A DNA stretch of 62,762 bases, taken from the NCBI GenBank assembly GCA_021794475.1, contig JAJYQS010000012.1, positions 1 through 62,762 on the forward strand, read 5' to 3'. Shown one piece after another: positions 1-61,102 of the stretch. Source of the DNA: a bacterium (GTDB lineage Bacteria > SZUA-79 > Acidulodesulfobacterales > Acidulodesulfobacteraceae). Made by a program: the position numbers and the translations under genes. The notes below the pieces were generated by a model, which was not told the DNA's origin, made no database searches, and was given only the letters and a program-made list of their open reading frames with translations. Position 1 is the stretch's first letter. Each line of letters starts with the position of its first letter.

Positions 1-1214
1 GGGGTAGGCAGAGCAGGATTCATATCCGGAATCATAACCGTAGGAATTAAAACAGGATAGGCTTTTATTCCTATCGAACGCAGCATAGACATAAAGAGCG
101 TCGCGTGGTCTTTGCAGTCGCCAAGTCTATTTTTAAATATTTTATTAACATTGCTGGGCTTATATCCGTCGATTCCAAATTCGTAACCTACATATCTGAT
201 TTTCTTTGCTACAAAATTATAGATAGCTTTTATTTTATAAGATTCGCTTTTTTTTGAATATGTTATTTTTTTGATGAAATTTTTAAGATTTTTATCCGGC
301 ATTATCCGGTCTTTTGTGAGCGTTGAATACCATTTTGCAACATCGTTCCATGTTTTAACCGACGAAATCATGACATGCGGAACTATAAACGATTCTCCGG
401 GTCCAAAATTTTCAGGGGTTATCTTCTTTCTATTTATTAATATCCATTTTAAGATAATTTCTTTATTTGTTTTTTTTATTTGAGGTTTAGCATGCATTTT
501 GTATTCTGCATATTTATAGTACATATTGGCAGGGATTGAAAGCCTGTAAACAGATTTTTTTACAGGCGATAAACCGCCGAAATAGTCTTCTGTAAAAAAA
601 TTATCTTTCATGTAAGGCTTTACGGTAATTGTTTTATATTTGTAATCTATTATAGAATTTTTCACAAGCTCCGGAAGCTGAATAGTTTTTAGCAATTGGT
701 TTGAAAACATCGGGTCATTCATATTAAACGGAGCCGTCACTGTTTTTAAGTTTTTTAAATTAATATTTATTATTTTGCCGTTCGGTTTTATTATTTTAAT
801 AAAATAAATTTTTAATTTTTGATTTTTAAGAGAAAATGGAAAACTTAGTTCCGAATATTTTTCTATTCCTTTTTTTGTTATAACTTTAATTTTTTCATGC
901 TGGATAAGTATATCTCTAAATTTAGGAGTTATTCTTTCGTTTGTGTCATCTAACAAAGTTATTGAAGAGGAAGGAATCTTAATGTTCTTCGGTTTAATTT
1001 TAGCCGCTTGGTAAGAAAATGCTTTTTGAGGCAAGGACAAATTGAAAAATATTAATGAGGACGCGATAAAAACAAACAACAATGCAATAAAAATAAATAA
1101 GTTATCTGTGTTATTGTTTTTGTAATTGATATCATTCATCATTTTTTTCTTATTTATCAATTGTTTTTTATTTTTTTTGCGGTATTTTTTATAAAAAGCT
1201 ATATCGTATTTCAT
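1..1214 (-). CDS. DUF3857/transglutaminase-like protein, 5' part only
   Basis: Reading the minus strand from an ATG at 1214 gives an open frame of about 404 codons with no stop before the window edge, so the C-terminus lies outside. After a basic N-terminus there is one hydrophobic segment (about residues 41-65) that can act as signal anchor, then a beta-rich region like DUF3857. Near residue 365 sits GDCKDHATLF, the catalytic-Cys motif of transglutaminase-like cysteine proteases, preceded by the usual segment with IRYVG. The family is exported or membrane-anchored in diderm bacteria; its substrate is generally unknown. It lies just downstream of a tRNA-Leu on the same strand. The His and Asp of the triad would be beyond the window, so activity cannot be judged. 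Confidence 0.8.
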   Translation of the reverse strand, partial: MKYDIAFYKKYRKKNKKQLINKKKMMNDINYKNNNTDNLFIFIALLFVFIASSLIFFNLSLPQKAFSYQAAKIKPKNIKIPSSSITLLDDTNERITPKFRDILIQHEKIKVITKKGIEKYSELSFPFSLKNQKLKIYFIKIIKPNGKIININLKNLKTVTAPFNMNDPMFSNQLLKTIQLPELVKNSIIDYKYKTITVKPYMKDNFFTEDYFGGLSPVKKSVYRLSIPANMYYKYAEYKMHAKPQIKKTNKEIILKWILINRKKITPENFGPGESFIVPHVMISSVKTWNDVAKWYSTLTKDRIMPDKNLKNFIKKITYSKKSESYKIKAIYNFVAKKIRYVGYEFGIDGYKPSNVNKIFKNRLGDCKDHATLFMSMLRSIGIKAYPVLIPTVMIPDMNPALPT

Positions 1215-1291
1215 ATTGCTCCATTATTAATTATTAAATTATTATTGATTGATTAATATTTTTTAAATTGGTCGTAATTATTTTGTAATTA

Positions 1292-1378
1292 TGGTGCCGG
1301 AAGGGGGAATCGAACCCCCACAAGAGAAATCTTACACGGCCCTGAACCGTGCGCGTCTACCAGTTCCGCCATTCCGGC
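1292..1378 (-). tRNA. tRNA-Leu (anticodon CAG)
   Basis: The minus strand folds into a complete class II tRNA. The 7-bp acceptor stem pairs GCCGGAA with TTCCGGC, followed by discriminator A and an encoded CCA (1292-1294). The anticodon stem CACGG/CCGTG holds loop TTCAGGG, giving anticodon CAG. A long variable arm and the T-arm loop TTCGATT are present. The long variable arm and anticodon both indicate leucine. Confidence 0.95.
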
Positions 1379-1593
1379 AGTTTTTGCAATAATTTATAAT
1401 AAAATTGAAAGGTTATTTTATCACTTTATTCTTTTCATTGCAGCTAAATTTTATTATACTATGGTTATTATAACTAAATTAAACATAATTTGGAATAATT
1501 ATTTATAAATATTTTAATTATGGTAAAATAAATTGTATTCCGATATTTTTATTATAATCCAATAAATAAGTATAATAAATATAAAAAGTATTC

Positions 1594-3954
1594 ATGAAAA
1601 ATTTTATTAAAAAAAGTAAAGACGTATCTGAAGATATATCTAAAGAAGAAATTTATGCTATATTTACGGAAGAAGAGTCCATACCTTTGTCTCTTTTAGA
1701 TATTAAGCACAAATTTAATATCAGTTCACCCGGAAAACTTAAGAAAATTAAAGAAATTTTAGATTTAATGGTAAAAGACGGCGATATCCTATTTACTAAA
1801 GGGGAAAAATATGCATTATCTAAAAGGCTTCATCTGATTGAAGGTGAAGTAGTTTCAAAAAAAGATAATTTTTCATTTGTACGAAACAGCGCCGGCGGAC
1901 CTGATATTTATGTTAAAAATTCCGATTTATCCGGAGCATTGCCGAAAGATATCGTTTTATTGAGAATAATTCCTGATAGTCCGCATTATTTAAAGAATGT
2001 TTCAAAATCAAATAAGAAAATCAGAGGCAGTGTCGTCAGAATTATAAAAAGACAATTAGAAAGTTTTATGGCAACGGTAAAACTAGATAAAAATATAGCC
2101 GCTCTGACTCCGATTTCGTCTAATTTTACCGATATATTTTATTCAGATTTGCACGGATTTAAAGACAAAAAATTGCTCAAAGACGGAATTGTCGTTAAAG
2201 CTAAATTGCTTGCGCCCGAAGATTTTTTATCGAGAGCCGTATCAGTAGAAAAAATATTGGGAGACATTGACGGCAGCGGTATAGAAGAAGAAATTGTGAT
2301 TAATAAATATAATCTGTATAAAGATTTTGACGAGGAAACATTAAGAGAATCTGATGCAATTCCTGAAAATTTTGAAGAAAGCGGTTTTTACGATAAAGAA
2401 AACAAAGCTAAGCGGGTAGATTTGACAAACCTCCCTTTTATTACCATAGATGGGGAAGATGCCAAAGATTTTGACGATGCCGTCTATTCAGAATTAATTG
2501 ATAAAAAAGACAAAACAGCCGGCAGATACAAATTATATGTTGCGATAGCCGATGTTTCTTATTTTGTTAAATGCGGAAGCAAAATTGACGCTGAAGCTTA
2601 TAAAAGAGGTAATTCTACCTATTTTCCGGGAATAGTTTATCCGATGCTTCCGGAGAAACTGTCAAATAATTTATGCAGCCTTCTTCCTAAAACGAAGAGA
2701 TTCGTTATGGTTTGCGAAATGCTTATAGACAGGCATGGCAAACTGCTTGAAAAAAAAGTATACGAGGGCATTATAAAAACGTACGACAGATTAACTTACA
2801 ATGAAGTTTTTGAATTCATTTCAGGTTTAAACAATCAAACGGATATGCGGGCTCAAATTTATTTAAAACTTAATCCGATCAAAGATATGCTTAAACAGAT
2901 GATTGAATTGTCGGATATCTTAAGAATTAAAAGAATTAAAGAAGGAAGTCTTAATTTTGACCCTGTATCAAGCAAAATTATTATCGACGAATCAGGAAAT
3001 GTACAAAAAATAGTTCAGGAAGAAAGAAATTTTGCAAATGATTTAATTGAAGACTTTATGATAACTGCTAATTGCGCAGTATCCGAATTAATTGAAAGCA
3101 GGAATGTGCCGTCTCTGTACAGAGTTCATCAAAAACCTGACGAAGAAAAGATAAATGAATTTTTAAAAACTATAAAACCGTTCGGTTTTAATTTTTCTTT
3201 GAAATCCCTCGATTCCGGCAAGGATTATCAGGAAATGCTTGATTCCTTAAAAGGCAAACCCATATCTCCTTTTCTTGAACAGGCATTTTTAAAATCGATG
3301 AAAATAGCGGTATATTCCAATGTAAATATCCATCATTTTGGATTAGCTCTTGCATCATACACGCATTTCACATCGCCGATACGCAGATACGCCGATTTGG
3401 TTATTCATAGAATTTTAAAAATTGTTATATATTCTGAAGCGGACGGCAGTATCAAAAATGGTGCTCATCCATGGTGGAACAATGAATATCTTAAGTCTGC
3501 AGGGAGTTTTATATCGCAAAGAGAAAGATTTTCTGCCGAAGCCGAAAGAGAGTATGTAGAATTTAAAAAAATGCAATTCTTAAAAAAAAATATTGAAGAA
3601 ACATATAGCGGTTATATTACAAGTGTAACTAATTTTGGCTTTTTTGTACAGATTATAGGGTATTTTATCACAGGTTTTGTCCATGTATCTACAATAGGGG
3701 ATGATTATTATGAATATAATTATACTACTAAAATCTTGAGAGGAAAGCATTCAGGCAAAATATTTAAAATGGGCGATGCAGTTGAAGTCGGCATATATTC
3801 TATTGACCTTCTAAAAAGAGAAATAGATTTGAGGCTTACGGAAAACAACTCATTCAAAAAAGCCGTCAGAATAAAAAAAAATAACAGAACTAAACAGAAT
3901 AAAACAAAACAGAATAAAACAGCGCGCAGCAGAAAACAAAAACAAAAACAATAA
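1594..3954 (+). CDS. rnr: Ribonuclease R (RNase II/R family exoribonuclease)
   Basis: This 3'-to-5' exoribonuclease degrades structured RNA, mRNA and rRNA. The 786 residues match the usual RNase R size. N-terminal cold-shock-type domains lead into the RNB catalytic domain. The metal-binding signature IDGEDAKDFDDAV places the four conserved Asp at residues 286, 292, 294 and 295. HFTSPIRRYADL follows later in the domain, and an S1 RNA-binding domain begins near residue 670. The C-terminus is a short basic Lys/Asn/Gln tail built partly from a tandem 15-bp duplication (KQNKT twice). The ATG at 1594 opens the frame. The next gene starts 6 bp after the stop, so co-transcription with the UbiB-family gene is likely. 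The long gap upstream, back to the divergent tRNA, should hold the promoter. Confidence 0.95.
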   Translation: MKNFIKKSKDVSEDISKEEIYAIFTEEESIPLSLLDIKHKFNISSPGKLKKIKEILDLMVKDGDILFTKGEKYALSKRLHLIEGEVVSKKDNFSFVRNSAGGPDIYVKNSDLSGALPKDIVLLRIIPDSPHYLKNVSKSNKKIRGSVVRIIKRQLESFMATVKLDKNIAALTPISSNFTDIFYSDLHGFKDKKLLKDGIVVKAKLLAPEDFLSRAVSVEKILGDIDGSGIEEEIVINKYNLYKDFDEETLRESDAIPENFEESGFYDKENKAKRVDLTNLPFITIDGEDAKDFDDAVYSELIDKKDKTAGRYKLYVAIADVSYFVKCGSKIDAEAYKRGNSTYFPGIVYPMLPEKLSNNLCSLLPKTKRFVMVCEMLIDRHGKLLEKKVYEGIIKTYDRLTYNEVFEFISGLNNQTDMRAQIYLKLNPIKDMLKQMIELSDILRIKRIKEGSLNFDPVSSKIIIDESGNVQKIVQEERNFANDLIEDFMITANCAVSELIESRNVPSLYRVHQKPDEEKINEFLKTIKPFGFNFSLKSLDSGKDYQEMLDSLKGKPISPFLEQAFLKSMKIAVYSNVNIHHFGLALASYTHFTSPIRRYADLVIHRILKIVIYSEADGSIKNGAHPWWNNEYLKSAGSFISQRERFSAEAEREYVEFKKMQFLKKNIEETYSGYITSVTNFGFFVQIIGYFITGFVHVSTIGDDYYEYNYTTKILRGKHSGKIFKMGDAVEVGIYSIDLLKREIDLRLTENNSFKKAVRIKKNNRTKQNKTKQNKTARSRKQKQKQ
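3891..3920 (+). repeat. 15-bp tandem duplication in the rnr 3' end
   Basis: Two adjacent copies of AAACAGAATAAAACA-type sequence encode KQNKT twice in the basic tail of RNase R. The unit is a multiple of three, so the frame is kept. Confidence 0.75.
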
Positions 3955-3960
3955 AAAATA

Positions 3961-5649
3961 ATGAAAATCATAGAGTTTTTTAAGTTTTTTAAAGCTGTAA
4001 AAAGGATTAGAGAAGTTTCTTTCATTTTTATTAAACACGGATTTTATCAGTTTGTTATTTCTATCGGTCTTTCAAGATACTTCATTTTTAAAAAATATTT
4101 AAAAAAAACATATTATATTTCAGACGCAGAAGAAGCGCCTCCGGAAGTGAGACTGAGAGTTGCGCTGGAAGAATTGGGTCCGACTTTTATAAAATTGGGA
4201 CAGATGGCTTCTCAGGAAATTTCTATATTACCGGCTCAGTATATAAATGAACTTAAAAAACTGCAGGATAATGTCAGATTAACTTTCGCCAAAAATTTTC
4301 AGATTAAAGAAATTATAAAAAGCGGTCTAGGTAAAAATATTGAAGATATTTTTCTTGAATTTGACGAACTTCCTATAGCTTCTGCATCTATCGCTCAGGT
4401 ACATAAAGCAGTTCTTAGAGACGGAACTAAAGTAGCCGTTAAAATCAAAAAACCCAATGCCGCCAAAGTAATAAGAGAGGACTTAGATGTTCTTTATTTT
4501 ATGGTAAAAATAGTAAGAGAACCTGCCAGAGAACTTTTCCATATCGACAATATAGATGAATTGTATTATGAATTTTCTAAAAATATTAAAGCAGAATTAA
4601 ATTTTCTGCAGGAAGCAGGATATACCGATAAAATCAGAAAGGCAAATATTAATACGGAAACAGTCGTTATACCGAAAATATTCTGGGAATATTCGACCGA
4701 TTCCATTTTGGTAGAAGAATTTATAGAAGGTATTAAAATTTCAGACAAAAATGAACTGCTAAAGAAGGGCTACAATTTAAAAAAAATTCTTGATATTTTT
4801 TTGGAATATTTCTTTAATCAGATTTTTTTAATAGGTTTTTTTAATGCAGACCCGCATCCTGGCAATATTTTTGTACTAAATGAATCTGAAATAGGCGTAA
4901 TAGACCACGGATTAGTCGGAAATCTTACAAAAAATACAAGACAGAAAGCTCTTAAATATTTAATTGATTTTTTAAAGGAAGACTATGATGGAGCGGCTAA
5001 TGATTTCATAGAGATTTGTTTAGCCGAATTAAGCGAAAAAGAAGAACAGGATTTTAAGCATGATTTAATGGAATTTATAGACAGCGTGTCGGTTAAACCT
5101 TTTAGGGACATATACAGTTCAGAATTGTTATTAGAAACTTTAAAAATTGCAAAGAAACACAATATTACGGTTCCTTCCGAATTAAATCTGTTGTTTAAGG
5201 CGCTTTTATCTATAGAATCGATTGCTAAGATATTAGACCCTTCGTTTACATTTAATAACCTGAATTTTTATGATTTTGCGGAAAGCAAAATTTCCGGAAA
5301 AGAAAAAGTTAAATTTATTAGAGAATCGTTCTTCAGCAAGTTAAAAAGCTACGGAGATTTTATTGCAGATTTTCCTAAAAAAGCCGAAAAAATATTACGC
5401 AAAATGTCGGAAGATAATTTTTCGATAGAATTTATTCATAAAGGTCTTGACGGTCTTATCGACGGGATTGAAAAAGCCAGCAAACGGCTTATGATTGGAC
5501 TTTTGCTTTCCGCTTTAATAATTTCATCGGCAATATTAATGTTTTTAGGAAGCAGACCGGCAATGGGGTGGATGGAAACAATGGGCACTGCAGGCTGGAT
5601 TTTAGGAATGCTGTATCTGTTCGTATTACTGATAAAAGGATTAAAATGA
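3961..5649 (+). CDS. ABC1/UbiB/AarF-family atypical protein kinase-like protein
   Basis: This is a 562-residue member of the UbiB/ABC1/ADCK family, ATPases or atypical kinases that support ubiquinone or other isoprenoid quinone metabolism at the membrane. The family-specific KLGQ motif is at residues 78-81, the Ala-rich nucleotide loop ASASIAQVH near 140, and the catalytic/metal motif ADPHPGNIF near 295, followed by VIDHG. Two hydrophobic helices at the C-terminus (about 500-560) are the usual membrane anchor. No other quinone biosynthesis gene is visible here, so the substrate pathway cannot be named. It sits 6 bp after rnr and 43 bp before ribF, all on the same strand. Confidence 0.88.
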   Translation: MKIIEFFKFFKAVKRIREVSFIFIKHGFYQFVISIGLSRYFIFKKYLKKTYYISDAEEAPPEVRLRVALEELGPTFIKLGQMASQEISILPAQYINELKKLQDNVRLTFAKNFQIKEIIKSGLGKNIEDIFLEFDELPIASASIAQVHKAVLRDGTKVAVKIKKPNAAKVIREDLDVLYFMVKIVREPARELFHIDNIDELYYEFSKNIKAELNFLQEAGYTDKIRKANINTETVVIPKIFWEYSTDSILVEEFIEGIKISDKNELLKKGYNLKKILDIFLEYFFNQIFLIGFFNADPHPGNIFVLNESEIGVIDHGLVGNLTKNTRQKALKYLIDFLKEDYDGAANDFIEICLAELSEKEEQDFKHDLMEFIDSVSVKPFRDIYSSELLLETLKIAKKHNITVPSELNLLFKALLSIESIAKILDPSFTFNNLNFYDFAESKISGKEKVKFIRESFFSKLKSYGDFIADFPKKAEKILRKMSEDNFSIEFIHKGLDGLIDGIEKASKRLMIGLLLSALIISSAILMFLGSRPAMGWMETMGTAGWILGMLYLFVLLIKGLK

Positions 5650-59260: not shown

Positions 59261-60310
59261 ATGGATAGTTATACCGACAATAAAAAAAATGAATTTTATA
59301 TTCAGTGGCATTTTATAGACAGCTGCAATTTAAGGTGTATTCATTGCTATCAGAATGACTATTTGTTTAAAGAACCCGACTTAAATAAATTAAGTCTTAT
59401 TTTTCACAAACTTGATGATGCTTTGGCAAAATGGAAAATGGGCGGTTTTGTTTCACTGACAGGAGGGGAACCCTTTCTGAGTCCTTCCTCTTTATTTTAT
59501 GTGGCTGAATTAATAGAAAATTCGCCAAATTTTCAAAATGTTGCCATATTATCAAACGGTACATTAATAGACGAAAATATTATTAAAGAAATTAAAAGAT
59601 TTAAAAAAATTACCGAGATTCAAATATCTATAGATGGACCTGATGCTCAAATACATGAATCCATAAGGGGAAAAGGTACTTTTTTGAAAACTGTTGAAAC
59701 TGTTAGAAAATTAGTTAGCGCAGGATTGAAAACTTCTATTATGTTTACGGTGCATAAAAAAAATATGGACTATGCCGAGGATATGCTGTATTTGGCTAAG
59801 GAACTTAAAGTAAATTCCTTAACCATTGAAAGAATGACAACAATGAATGAAAAAGAAAAAAACGAATTTTTTATCAATCCTTATGATTTGGAAAGAGTTT
59901 ATAAAAACTTGTATGAAAAATCTAAAGTAGTGTTTGCAGAATCTGTGACAAAACTTATAACTTCCAGACCGTTATGGAATCTGGTAGATGAAAGTGCAGG
60001 CGGGTTTTGCCCGGTAGGACTTTCTTCAGTCTGCATTCTTCATGACGGTACCGTGCTCCCATGTAGAAGGCTCTATTTGCCGCTGGGAAATATTATTGAA
60101 GAAGGTCTCTTTAAAATATGGTATGGTTCAAAAATTTTATGGGATATTAGAAATAAGAAAAATCCGCCGGATAATAGCGGGGTTCATCCGCAATCTGCAT
60201 GTTCGGATATTAATTGTTCCCATTTTAAAAGATGCGGAGGATGCAAAGCGGTGAGCTATTATTATCACGGCAATATACACGAAAAAGATCCTCAATGCTG
60301 GCTTAACTGA
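59261..60310 (+). CDS. Radical SAM/SPASM peptide-modifying enzyme
   Basis: A 349-residue radical SAM enzyme. The cluster motif is CNLRCIHC (Cys22, 26, 29), with TGGEPFLSP at 67-75. The C-terminal SPASM domain has Cys258, GTVLPC (Cys268), Cys314, Cys319, Cys325, Cys328 and Cys346, enough to hold two auxiliary Fe-S clusters; Cys250 lies just before them. SPASM enzymes near a PqqD-like protein and a small peptide modify that peptide. Here the PqqD-like gene starts 57 bp downstream and a 34-codon peptide gene follows. Candidate reactions are tyramine excision (splicease), thioether formation or Tyr cross-linking. No strong ribosome binding site was found upstream. Confidence 0.9.
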   Translation: MDSYTDNKKNEFYIQWHFIDSCNLRCIHCYQNDYLFKEPDLNKLSLIFHKLDDALAKWKMGGFVSLTGGEPFLSPSSLFYVAELIENSPNFQNVAILSNGTLIDENIIKEIKRFKKITEIQISIDGPDAQIHESIRGKGTFLKTVETVRKLVSAGLKTSIMFTVHKKNMDYAEDMLYLAKELKVNSLTIERMTTMNEKEKNEFFINPYDLERVYKNLYEKSKVVFAESVTKLITSRPLWNLVDESAGGFCPVGLSSVCILHDGTVLPCRRLYLPLGNIIEEGLFKIWYGSKILWDIRNKKNPPDNSGVHPQSACSDINCSHFKRCGGCKAVSYYYHGNIHEKDPQCWLN

Positions 60311-60366
60311 TTTTATAAAAAAATACAGTTAGTCGGTACAATTAATTAAGGGATGGTTCGCTGATT

Positions 60367-60633
60367 ATGAATGTTATTAAATATAAACTTTTGCCGCAGT
60401 ATATTTTGCATGATGACGGCACGGAAAAATATATGCTTTTTGATACTAATACAGGCGACATATATAAATTGAATGCCGTGTCATATAATATCTTATCCTT
60501 TTGCAGCGGTGAATACACAAGCGATGAAATAAAAAATGAAATCTTAAAAATGTTTGATGTTCCTTTAGATATTTTAAGCAAAGATTTTAATGATATTATT
60601 ACAAAATTTCTAAATGAAAATATAATTTCTTAA
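60367..60633 (+). CDS. PqqD-like RiPP recognition element protein
   Basis: An 88-residue stand-alone PqqD-fold protein. The pattern MLFDTNTGDIYKLNAVSYNIL (beta-hairpin then helix, cut to its core) and a C-terminal amphipathic stretch with FLNENIIS match the winged-helix RiPP recognition element (RRE). Such proteins bind the leader of a precursor peptide and present it to the modifying enzyme, as PqqD does for PqqE. It sits between the radical SAM gene and the peptide gene. Confidence 0.85.
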   Translation: MNVIKYKLLPQYILHDDGTEKYMLFDTNTGDIYKLNAVSYNILSFCSGEYTSDEIKNEILKMFDVPLDILSKDFNDIITKFLNENIIS

Positions 60634-60743
60634 AATTCTTAAAATAAAATAAAAATATTTTTTAATAATCGCTAAAATTATTTTTAATTTTTCTTAAATT
60701 TTTCTAAAAATAACGTCAGTTAAAATTAAGGAGGTGAAAAAAC

Positions 60744-60848
60744 ATGAAGACCAATTACGAAAAGCCGCTGTTGGAGCAGTTGGATGCCGAAGAGTTTTAT
60801 TTAACTTTAATGGACAACTATGGAGTTAACGATTCGTGCTATTCTTGA
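60744..60848 (+). CDS. 34-residue putative RiPP precursor peptide
   Basis: The frame opens with ATG at 60744, preceded by AAGGAGGTG (60728-60736), the best Shine-Dalgarno sequence in this part of the window. The peptide starts MKTNYEKPLLEQL. Y5-P8-L10 fit the YxxPxL motif that RRE domains bind in lasso-peptide and related leaders. The C-terminal half is acidic with Tyr19, Tyr26, Tyr33 and a single Cys32; it contains N25-Y26-G27 followed by VNDSC. There is no GG or obvious protease site, no signal peptide and no similarity to a housekeeping protein. It is too short for standard gene callers. Role inferred from context. Confidence 0.78.
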   Translation: MKTNYEKPLLEQLDAEEFYLTLMDNYGVNDSCYS

Positions 60849-60887
60849 AAATCCTGCAAGTGAAATGTGCAGTTGGCACATAAGAAT

Positions 60888-60960
60888 TAAGCGTCTTATT
60901 CTTGAAATATTATAAAAAATATAAAAAGAAAAAGGCGCTTATTTTATTTATCTTATTTTT
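60888..60960 (+). terminator. Intrinsic terminator after the peptide gene
   Basis: TAAGCGTCTTATTCTT (60888-60903) pairs with AAGAAAAAGGCGCTTA (60926-60941), 16 positions with one wobble and one A-A mismatch, around a 22-nt loop. A long T-rich tract follows. It closes the radical SAM cassette. Confidence 0.8.
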
Positions 60961-61102
60961 TTTAATTTTAATTAATTATATAGTAGCCGTTTTCAATGTT
61001 GCATAATAATTGCGGCAATAGTTTGGTTTAAGTTTTGTATACATAAAAAAATAGTTATATTATCTTAATCTTATCTTATTTTTTTTATTCTCGTTCTCTT
61101 TT

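What the first reader, a model, noticed from the sequence alone, without database searches (positions are those of the whole stretch)
60744..60848. Precursor carries both an RRE-binding YxxPxL motif and an Asn-Tyr-Gly tripeptide: splicease hypothesis
Seen: Y5-x-x-P8-x-L10 near the N-terminus; N25-Y26-G27 then VNDSC near the C-terminus. Known: YxxPxL is the leader motif recognised by RREs in lasso-peptide systems; PlpX/PlpY-type spliceases (a radical SAM enzyme with an RRE partner) excise tyramine at X-Tyr-Gly, leaving an alpha-keto-beta-amino acid. Inference: Tyr26 is the excised residue and Asn25 becomes the beta-residue. Alternatives are a thioether at the single Cys32, Tyr/Glu chemistry as in PqqA, or epimerisation.
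Basis: partly seen in the sequence, partly recalled or inferred. Interest (0 to 1): 0.87.

Follow-up and report, generated by a model that had tools for sequence, protein, structure and literature searches.

The report
Selenocysteine-containing RiPP precursor with its maturase
What looks like a 34-residue peptide ending at a stop codon is most likely a 39-residue peptide in which that UGA codon is read as selenocysteine, made next to a radical enzyme that probably modifies it, so it would be a second, unlisted kind of selenium-containing ribosomal natural product.

Summary
The ORF is real but its end is misread. The 'stop' at 60846-60848 is UGA; the frame continues K-S-C-K-stop to 60863. In the window's phylum (30 genomes held) I counted 35 copies: position 35 is UGA in 25 and Cys in 10, never UAA or UAG. 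All 25 UGA copies carry a 4-7 bp stem with an AG[GU]U[GUA] loop 18-25 nt behind the UGA, against 2 of 10 Cys copies and 2 of 192 control gene ends. Codons after the UGA vary mostly silently. SelA, SelB, tRNA-Sec and a UGA-containing SelD are in the same genome. The precursor is therefore ...NYGVNDSCYS-Sec-KSCK, with a CxxUxxC core, beside a radical SAM/SPASM enzyme and a lasso-type RRE. Splicing at Asn-Tyr-Gly is not excluded: Tyr-Gly is in 25 of 25 Sec copies but 4 of 10 Cys copies. The enzyme misses the recalled PlpX-family model, and distant relatives pair it with CxxCxxC peptides lacking Tyr-Gly. Modification at Sec/Cys is the better guess; the chemistry is unproven. The one Sec RiPP in a 2026 inventory is the selenobacteriocin; this precursor matches no NCBIfam model.

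The parts
59261..60310 (+). radical SAM/SPASM maturase (349 aa); CxxxCxxC at C22/C26/C29 and seven SPASM Cys C250, C268, C314, C319, C325, C328, C346
   Evidence: Pfam PF04055 7.4e-24 and PF13186 5.7e-8; the ten Cys are invariant in 5 aligned sequences down to 28% identity; best NCBIfam match TIGR04340 118.6 bits of 400, none of the 25 families shown reaches its cut-off
60367..60633 (+). PqqD-type RRE protein (88 aa), presumed leader-peptide binder
   Evidence: PF05402 4.2e-8; model pLDDT 89.7; best PDB match lasso RRE TbiB1 with leader peptide, 5v1v_A, E 2.0e-5, TM 0.81
60730..60734 (+). ribosome-binding site GGAGG of the precursor gene
   Evidence: read directly; GGAGG or GGGGG in the 18 nt printed before 32 of 35 copies; two of the other three had been printed from a wrong start and have it before the true one
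   Evidence: translation with TGA=U; 25 Sec and 10 Cys copies in the phylum
60846..60848 (+). UGA codon read as selenocysteine (Sec35)
   Evidence: 25 TGA, 10 TGC/TGT, 0 TAA, 0 TAG at this position; the downstream codons are conserved by mostly synonymous change
60865..60881 (+). bSECIS hairpin: stem ATGTGC/GCACAT, loop AGTTG, 22 nt between UGA and loop
   Evidence: fits the stem, loop, G-position and spacing rules quoted in PMC13188914

Best explanation
A three-gene RiPP cassette whose precursor is a selenopeptide. UGA35 is decoded as selenocysteine through a bSECIS hairpin just behind the gene, giving a 39-residue peptide with leader Y-x-x-P-x-L and core Y-G-V-N-D-S-C-Y-S-U-K-S-C-K (CxxUxxC). 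Inferred steps: the RRE protein binds the leader at YxxP and presents the core to the radical SAM/SPASM enzyme, which oxidatively modifies the Cys/Sec core. I think a selenoether or thioether bond from Sec35 (or Cys32/Cys38) to a nearby carbon is most likely, possibly in the invariant Tyr26-Gly27, with a thio(seleno)oxazole next. Shown by sequence: Sec coding, hairpin, the machinery, the cassette and its conservation. Not shown: Sec insertion in cells, the modification itself and the function. No exporter or protease is among the neighbours tested, so a retained, redox-active or metal-binding peptide seems more likely than a bacteriocin (inference).
For: UGA or Cys at position 35 in all 35 intact copies, no UAA or UAG, while the true stop behind the UGA varies (TGA 11, TAA 9, TAG 5) and TGA ends only 25 of 124 ORFs of 200 aa or more in the window and ten loci. 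My pattern demanded a stop or Cys there, but it caught 35 of the 36 places found without it; the 36th, degenerate, has TGA too. 13 distinct tails after the UGA: single-base codon differences 123 silent to 10 replacing (pairs of copies, not independent), expected silent share 0.156. Hairpin in 25 of 25 UGA copies, 0 of 38 ordinary TGA gene ends, 2 of 192 gene ends of any kind, 2 of 10 Cys copies; stem 100% paired, three of five pairs changed on both sides. SelA 574.3 bits, SelB 315.7 bits, tRNA-Sec 69.5 bits and a SelD with in-frame UGA in the window's own genome; ARAGORN calls tRNA-SeC(tca). Cys homologues CYSCKSCK, CYSCKGCK and SCHTCRACF align residue for residue. rSAM in 23 of 30 genomes, Sec precursor in 23, both in 21.
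Against: No experiment shows selenium in the peptide or any modification. The hairpin is small: over 34 nt it gives -7.1 kcal/mol in the window, just short of the -7.5 rule, and 15 of 25 copies pass. The number of pair types in the stem does not exceed the shuffles (4 against 4.8). The loop differs from that of SelD in the same genomes (GGA), and one Cys copy (G011) keeps a full hairpin. G007 (97% complete) has an intact Sec precursor but no enzyme match better than 1.3e-18 (26-33% identity); G017 has an rSAM fragment at a contig end and no precursor; G029 has the maturase with Cys precursors only. That the enzyme acts on Sec/Cys rests on relatives' Cys-rich peptides and weak profile likeness, not on a test.
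Confidence: 0.85

Rival explanations
1. Splicease: the rSAM/RRE pair excises tyramine at Asn25-Tyr26-Gly27 leaving an alpha-keto-beta-amino residue, with Sec35 as an extra or as part of recognition.
For: XYG in 25 of 25 intact Sec copies; PlpXY acts naturally at MYG and LYG, also at an engineered GYG, with an RRE partner (PMC10533398 passages; PMC11002830 passages); here X is G, N, D or S.
Against: YG absent in 6 of 10 Cys-type copies and from Bacillota and Actinomycetota relatives' precursors; rSAM 27.2 bits of 725 for TIGR04103 (link to PlpX recalled); no Nif11 or nitrile-hydratase-like leader model matched.
Confidence: 0.1
2. Thio(seleno)oxazole: the rSAM oxidises Sec35 (or a Cys) by four electrons as SbtM does.
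For: SbtM profile TIGR04082 is the third-best NCBIfam match (109.9 bits); SbtM takes Cys or Sec substrates, which lose four hydrogens (PMC11002830 passage).
Against: Below the 350-bit cut-off, matching only positions 198-515 of 516; the selenobacteriocin motif is SGUG whereas this is CYSUKSC; precursor does not hit TIGR04081.
Confidence: 0.15
3. The UGA is an ordinary stop; the peptide ends SCYS and KSCK is left over from a Cys-type ancestor.
For: Distant relatives have the longer CxxC tail, so truncation is conceivable.
Against: 25 UGA copies with no UAA/UAG, mostly silent tail evolution, a hairpin tied to UGA, full Sec machinery.
Confidence: 0.04
4. Tyr/Glu-type cofactor chemistry as in PQQ or mycofactocin: E16-E17-F18-Y19 or Y33 is the modified site and the peptide yields a redox cofactor.
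For: Precursor conserved across a phylum, PqqD-like RRE, no transporter among tested neighbours; E16-E17-F18 invariant in 35 copies.
Against: Mycofactocin maturase model 83.6 of 265 bits; EEF lies in the leader half and position 19 varies (N, T).
Confidence: 0.12

Closest known systems
Selenobacteriocin SbtA/SbtM (TIGR04081/TIGR04082)
   Same: Ribosomal precursor with in-frame UGA and SECIS next to a SPASM radical SAM maturase (PMC11002830 passage; listed in PMC13188914)
   Different: Motif SGUG with two Sec in the inventory versus one Sec in CYSUKSC; maturase 109.9 bits of a 350 cut-off; the SbtM profile has 197 further N-terminal positions not matched; here a separate lasso-type RRE and YxxP leader
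ACGX-system rSAM (TIGR04340)
   Same: Best NCBIfam score of the maturase (118.6 bits); relative L008 (25% identical) lies beside an ACGx-repeat peptide
   Different: Cut-off 400 not met; window precursor has no ACGX repeats; no open paper holds both 'ACGX' and 'radical SAM'
Spliceotide PlpXY
   Same: rSAM/SPASM plus RRE, XYG in precursor
   Different: Recalled family model and leader type not met; Sec core
Sactipeptide maturase SkfB (6efn)
   Same: Closest solved structure by sequence (1.3e-14) and by fold
   Different: 21% identity in the structural alignment, on a low-confidence model (pLDDT 62.6)
Mycofactocin MftABC
   Same: Tiny precursor, RRE and SPASM rSAM (recalled)
   Different: 83.6 of 265 bits; gene order and C-terminal VY differ (recalled)

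Membership tests
Bacterial selenoprotein | in-frame UGA aligned to Cys in homologues | tested here: met
   25 UGA and 10 Cys copies, no other codon
Bacterial selenoprotein | bSECIS: 4-16 bp upper stem, 3-9 nt loop, G in first two loop positions, 16-37 nt from UGA to loop (rules from PMC13188914) | tested here: met
   25 of 25 copies: stem 4-7 bp, loop 5 nt with G second, 18-25 nt; window 6 bp, AGTTG, 22 nt
Bacterial selenoprotein | bSECIS free energy <= -7.5 kcal/mol | tested here: inconclusive
   window -7.1 for 34 nt, -9.9 for 62 nt with a second hairpin; 15 of 25 pass on 34 nt
Bacterial selenoprotein | SelA, SelB, SelD, tRNA-Sec in the genome | tested here: met
   own genome all four; phylum SelA 28/30, SelB 27/30, tRNA-Sec 25/30 over cut-off, SelD 30/30 with one TGA
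Bacterial selenoprotein | selenium present in the product | not testable with these tools
   needs 75Se or MS
RRE-dependent rSAM/SPASM RiPP | CxxxCxxC and SPASM cysteines in the enzyme | tested here: met
RRE-dependent rSAM/SPASM RiPP | RRE (PqqD) fold partner and adjacent short precursor | tested here: met
   precursor beside the pair in the window and in Bacillota and Actinomycetota relatives
RRE-dependent rSAM/SPASM RiPP | modified product | not testable with these tools
   no product data
Spliceotide (PlpXY) | maturase in the PlpX family (TIGR04103; link to PlpX recalled) | tested here: not met
   27.2 bits, cut-off 725; three other loci of the same genome score higher
Spliceotide (PlpXY) | Nif11 or nitrile-hydratase-like leader | tested here: not met
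   no such Pfam or NCBIfam match
Spliceotide (PlpXY) | conserved X-Tyr-Gly | tested here: inconclusive
   25/25 intact Sec copies, 4/10 Cys copies
Spliceotide (PlpXY) | loss of C8H9NO | not testable with these tools
   needs MS
Selenobacteriocin (SbtA/SbtM) | maturase over TIGR04082 cut-off | tested here: not met
   109.9 of 350 bits
Selenobacteriocin (SbtA/SbtM) | precursor of TIGR04081, SGUG motif | tested here: not met
   no match at E<=10 with Cys for Sec; motif is CYSUKSC
ACGX system | maturase over TIGR04340 cut-off | tested here: not met
   118.6 of 400 bits
Mycofactocin | maturase over TIGR03962 cut-off | tested here: not met
   83.6 of 265 bits

The most novel reading that the evidence does not exclude
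A new class of ribosomal selenopeptide: the radical SAM enzyme ties Sec35 to the invariant Tyr26-Gly27 (a Se-C cross-link that needs selenium), turning CxxUxxC into a retained redox or metal-binding, cofactor-like peptide that has been kept through most of a bacterial phylum. Tyr-Gly being invariant with Sec and free to vary with Cys is the trace of that bond.
Probability: 0.25. Interest if true: 0.93.

Novelty: new variant of a known kind. Interest (0 to 1): 0.82.

Why it matters
The one Sec-containing RiPP in a 2026 inventory of 119 prokaryotic selenoprotein families and subfamilies is the selenobacteriocin (PMC13188914 table). This would be a second, with a different core, leader, RRE and maturase, found as a Sec form in five of the six genera of its phylum. 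It also shows how such peptides are missed: a gene caller stops at the UGA, four codons before the end. Natural Sec and Cys versions in neighbouring genomes and even in the same cluster (G011, G024) make the question 'what does selenium add to a radical SAM peptide reaction' directly testable.

Tried and rejected
Splicease membership: rejected on the recalled enzyme model and leader type, kept as a rival mechanism. Lone thioether at Cys32: rejected as stated because the core has Cys32, Sec35 and Cys38. Ordinary stop or truncation: rejected. Second TGA of the window (60861-60863) as another Sec: rejected, that position is TAA or TAG in 14 of 25 Sec copies and lies one base from the stem. Recoding of all TGA: rejected, TGA ends 25 of 124 long ORFs.

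Rows dropped before counting: of 36 places at E <= 4.4e-4 one degenerate copy, G026:C88:12057 (in-frame TAA upstream, TGA at position 35, NYE instead of a YG triplet); five weaker matches inside long ORFs in G000, G001, G008, G017 and G025; the second-system precursor L034 in G001. The 35 copies are those that my pattern found in 29 chosen loci; the same places seen again in other loci were not counted twice. The first SelD pattern read wrong frames and was redone, which printed 30 SelD rows and one spurious row.

Led nowhere: plasmid search, no match; viral contigs gave 14 distant rSAM relatives (22-32%) not followed; the rSAM model is of low confidence (pLDDT 62.6), so its matches say little more than 'radical SAM/SPASM'; literature searches for ACGX, selenobacteriocin names and Sec RiPPs gave, of use, only the papers cited; the 2021 SbtM paper and the 2011 paper recalled as Haft and Basu are not held. 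A screen of the window for other UGA genes (60 or more codons before, 40 or more after, hairpin behind) found none with a hairpin.

Full report
WHAT IS THERE. The window holds, on the + strand, a radical SAM/SPASM gene (59261-60310), a PqqD-type RRE gene (60367-60633) and the short gene of the finding at 60744. Pfam gives Radical_SAM, SPASM and PqqD. None of the 25 NCBIfam families shown for the enzyme is met: the best are TIGR04340 ACGX (118.6 bits of a 400 cut-off), AhbD, TIGR04082 SbtM (109.9 of 350) and GeoRSP. The three rSAM cysteines and seven SPASM cysteines are invariant in five aligned sequences. The RRE model (pLDDT 89.7) is closest to lasso-peptide RREs solved with leader peptides (TbiB1, TM 0.81, E 2.0e-5), which fits the Y-x-x-P-x-L leader. 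Upstream lies a Pal-like lipoprotein on the other strand, downstream a GatD-like amidotransferase, a glyoxalase-like protein and QueF. No transporter or peptidase is among the seven neighbours tested.

THE STOP IS NOT A STOP. The frame goes on AAA TCC TGC AAG TGA, K-S-C-K-stop. In the window's phylum (30 genomes held, one family, six genera) the precursor search matched 28 of 30 genomes at E <= 1, weak chance matches included, with 36 places at E <= 4.4e-4. One of the 36 is a degenerate copy in G026; the other 35 are intact: 25 with TGA at position 35 and 10 with TGC or TGT, none with TAA or TAG. The pattern used for counting asked for a stop or Cys there, but it lost only the degenerate copy, which has TGA too. 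The Cys copies read straight through into the same tail: SCYSCKSCK, SCYSCKGCK, SCHTCRACF. Behind the UGA the true terminator is TGA in 11, TAA in 9 and TAG in 5 copies, whereas ORFs of 200 aa or more in the window and ten loci end in TGA in 25 of 124 cases. The 13 distinct tails after the UGA differ mostly silently: of codon pairs differing by one base 123 are silent and 10 not, where 16% silent is expected without selection (pairs are not independent).

A SECIS HAIRPIN GOES WITH THE UGA. Each of the 25 UGA copies has a stem of 4-7 pairs, 12-19 nt behind the UGA, with a loop AGUUG, AGUUU, AGUUA or AGGUU. In the window it is AUGUGC-AGUUG-GCACAU at 60865-60881, 22 nt between UGA and loop. Published rules, read as passages of PMC13188914, ask for a 3-9 nt loop, a 4-16 bp stem, a G in the first two loop positions and 16-37 nt spacing; all are met in 25 of 25. 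The energy rule (-7.5) is met by 15 of 25 when 34 nt are folded alone, the window just missing at -7.1. On 20 aligned tails all cells pair, three of five pairs change on both sides, and the covariation score is 0.246 against 0.142 in shuffles and at most 0.084 when slid; the count of pair types does not exceed the shuffles. The same test on 192 ends of ORFs of 150 aa or more finds 2, none of the 38 that end in TGA and none with this loop type. Of the 10 Cys copies 2 keep a hairpin: one with another loop (G004), one intact (a G011 copy). SelD in the same genomes has another loop (GGA) at similar spacing, so the loop is not a house style.

THE CELL CAN MAKE SELENOCYSTEINE. SelB is over its cut-off in 27 of 30 genomes (own: 315.7 bits), tRNA-Sec in 25 of 30 (own: 69.5 bits; ARAGORN agrees), SelA in 28 of 30 (own: 574.3 bits), and SelD in 30 of 30, each with one in-frame TGA, read as AHG-U-GCK.

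CONSERVATION OF THE CORE. Over 21 distinct Sec sequences E16, E17, F18, Y26, G27, S31, C32, Y33, U35 and C38 do not vary. Tyr26-Gly27 is in 25 of 25 intact Sec copies but 4 of 10 Cys copies, which otherwise have NFR, NFV, NNA (twice), CHE and SYR over positions 25-27 (Fisher p 1.3e-4 ignoring kinship). Farther relatives of the rSAM (35-50% identical) in Bacillota and Actinomycetota sit beside an RRE and a peptide with YxxPx[IFV] and a tail WCFGCTNCNCN or ACRQCSSCHGCR. Of 398 and 396 genomes sampled in those two phyla 3 and 2 had the enzyme at E <= 1e-45, the seed genome of each counted in. The shared element over the enzyme group, as far as seen, is CxxCxxC, with Sec at the middle Cys in the window's phylum.

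GENETICS OF THE CASSETTE. The enzyme is in 23 of 30 genomes, a Sec precursor in 23, both in 21. In G001, G006 and G009 the precursor stays at the Pal locus while rSAM and RRE lie elsewhere, so the enzyme may act in trans; G001 and G008 keep rSAM stubs beside the precursor. L007 lacks about window-equivalent 59340-61054, that is the cassette except the first codons of the rSAM. G011 and G024 carry two Cys precursors before and one Sec precursor behind the same rSAM-RRE pair. Against a strict pairing, G007 (97% complete) has an intact Sec precursor and no enzyme match better than 1.3e-18, and G004, G021 and G022 have Cys precursors without the enzyme.

MECHANISM. Shown by sequence: a Sec-coding precursor, its SECIS, the RRE and the SPASM enzyme. 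Inferred: leader binding through YxxP, then radical chemistry on the Cys/Sec core. A selenoether or thioether is favoured because related enzymes go with Cys-rich peptides, and the nearest solved relative is the sactipeptide maturase SkfB (phmmer 1.3e-14; fold, on a low-confidence model). Thio(seleno)oxazole formation, as for SbtM with Cys or Sec substrates (PMC11002830 passage), is next. Tyramine splicing at NYG is possible, but the enzyme misses the recalled PlpX model TIGR04103 (27.2 of 725 bits), no Nif11-like leader is found, and YG is dispensable in Cys copies. The link of YG to Sec suggests that Tyr26-Gly27 is the partner of Sec35; this is a guess to be tested.

KNOWN OR NEW. The inventory in PMC13188914 (section with table, parts 1 and 2) lists one RiPP, the selenobacteriocin TIGR04081 with SGUG. 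The precursor here, with Cys for Sec, hits no NCBIfam model at E <= 10, which covers those listed families that carry NCBIfam numbers. Searches of open papers for Sec RiPPs (listings seen) showed no description of a CxxUxxC precursor with a YxxP leader; most subscription papers are not held. deep-Sep (PMC12013277, term search of the main text only) mentions neither RiPPs nor radical SAM. I rate it a new variant of a known kind, Sec-containing RiPPs.

Noticed in passing
L074 3217-3696, L075 331-801, L084 6878-7348, L091 5869-6351: DsrE-like proteins with a signal-like N-terminus sit beside Cys-type precursors and beside the lone rSAM of G028, hinting at sulfur handling (PF02635 for L075 and L084, L091 just under cut-off; L074 by likeness, not scanned).
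   Followed up: partly
G001, G002, G003, G006, G007, G010, G028, G029: selA and selD lie about 10-18 kb from the precursor locus on the same contig, so the cassette is in the neighbourhood of the Sec genes.
   Followed up: partly
L100, L103, L104: Distant relatives' clusters hold a small toroid protein like squalene cyclase or prenyltransferase (PF13243 for L100 and L104; L103 by eye).
   Followed up: no
L074 (G004 C75) and L075 (G021 C93): Nearly identical Cys precursors in two genera, one on a 4.4 kb contig: transfer or bin contamination.
   Followed up: no
L085 (G011 C66) versus L084 8618-8716: Related copies SCYV-UGA-RACF and SCHTCRACF with the same intact hairpin in one genome, which looks like a recent Sec/Cys switch.
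   Followed up: partly
L104 (coordinates 315-5361 after reversal), G001: A second, Cys-type system (CRQCSSCHACR) in a genome that also has the Sec precursor, beside what look by eye like a glycosyltransferase and a second rSAM.
   Followed up: no
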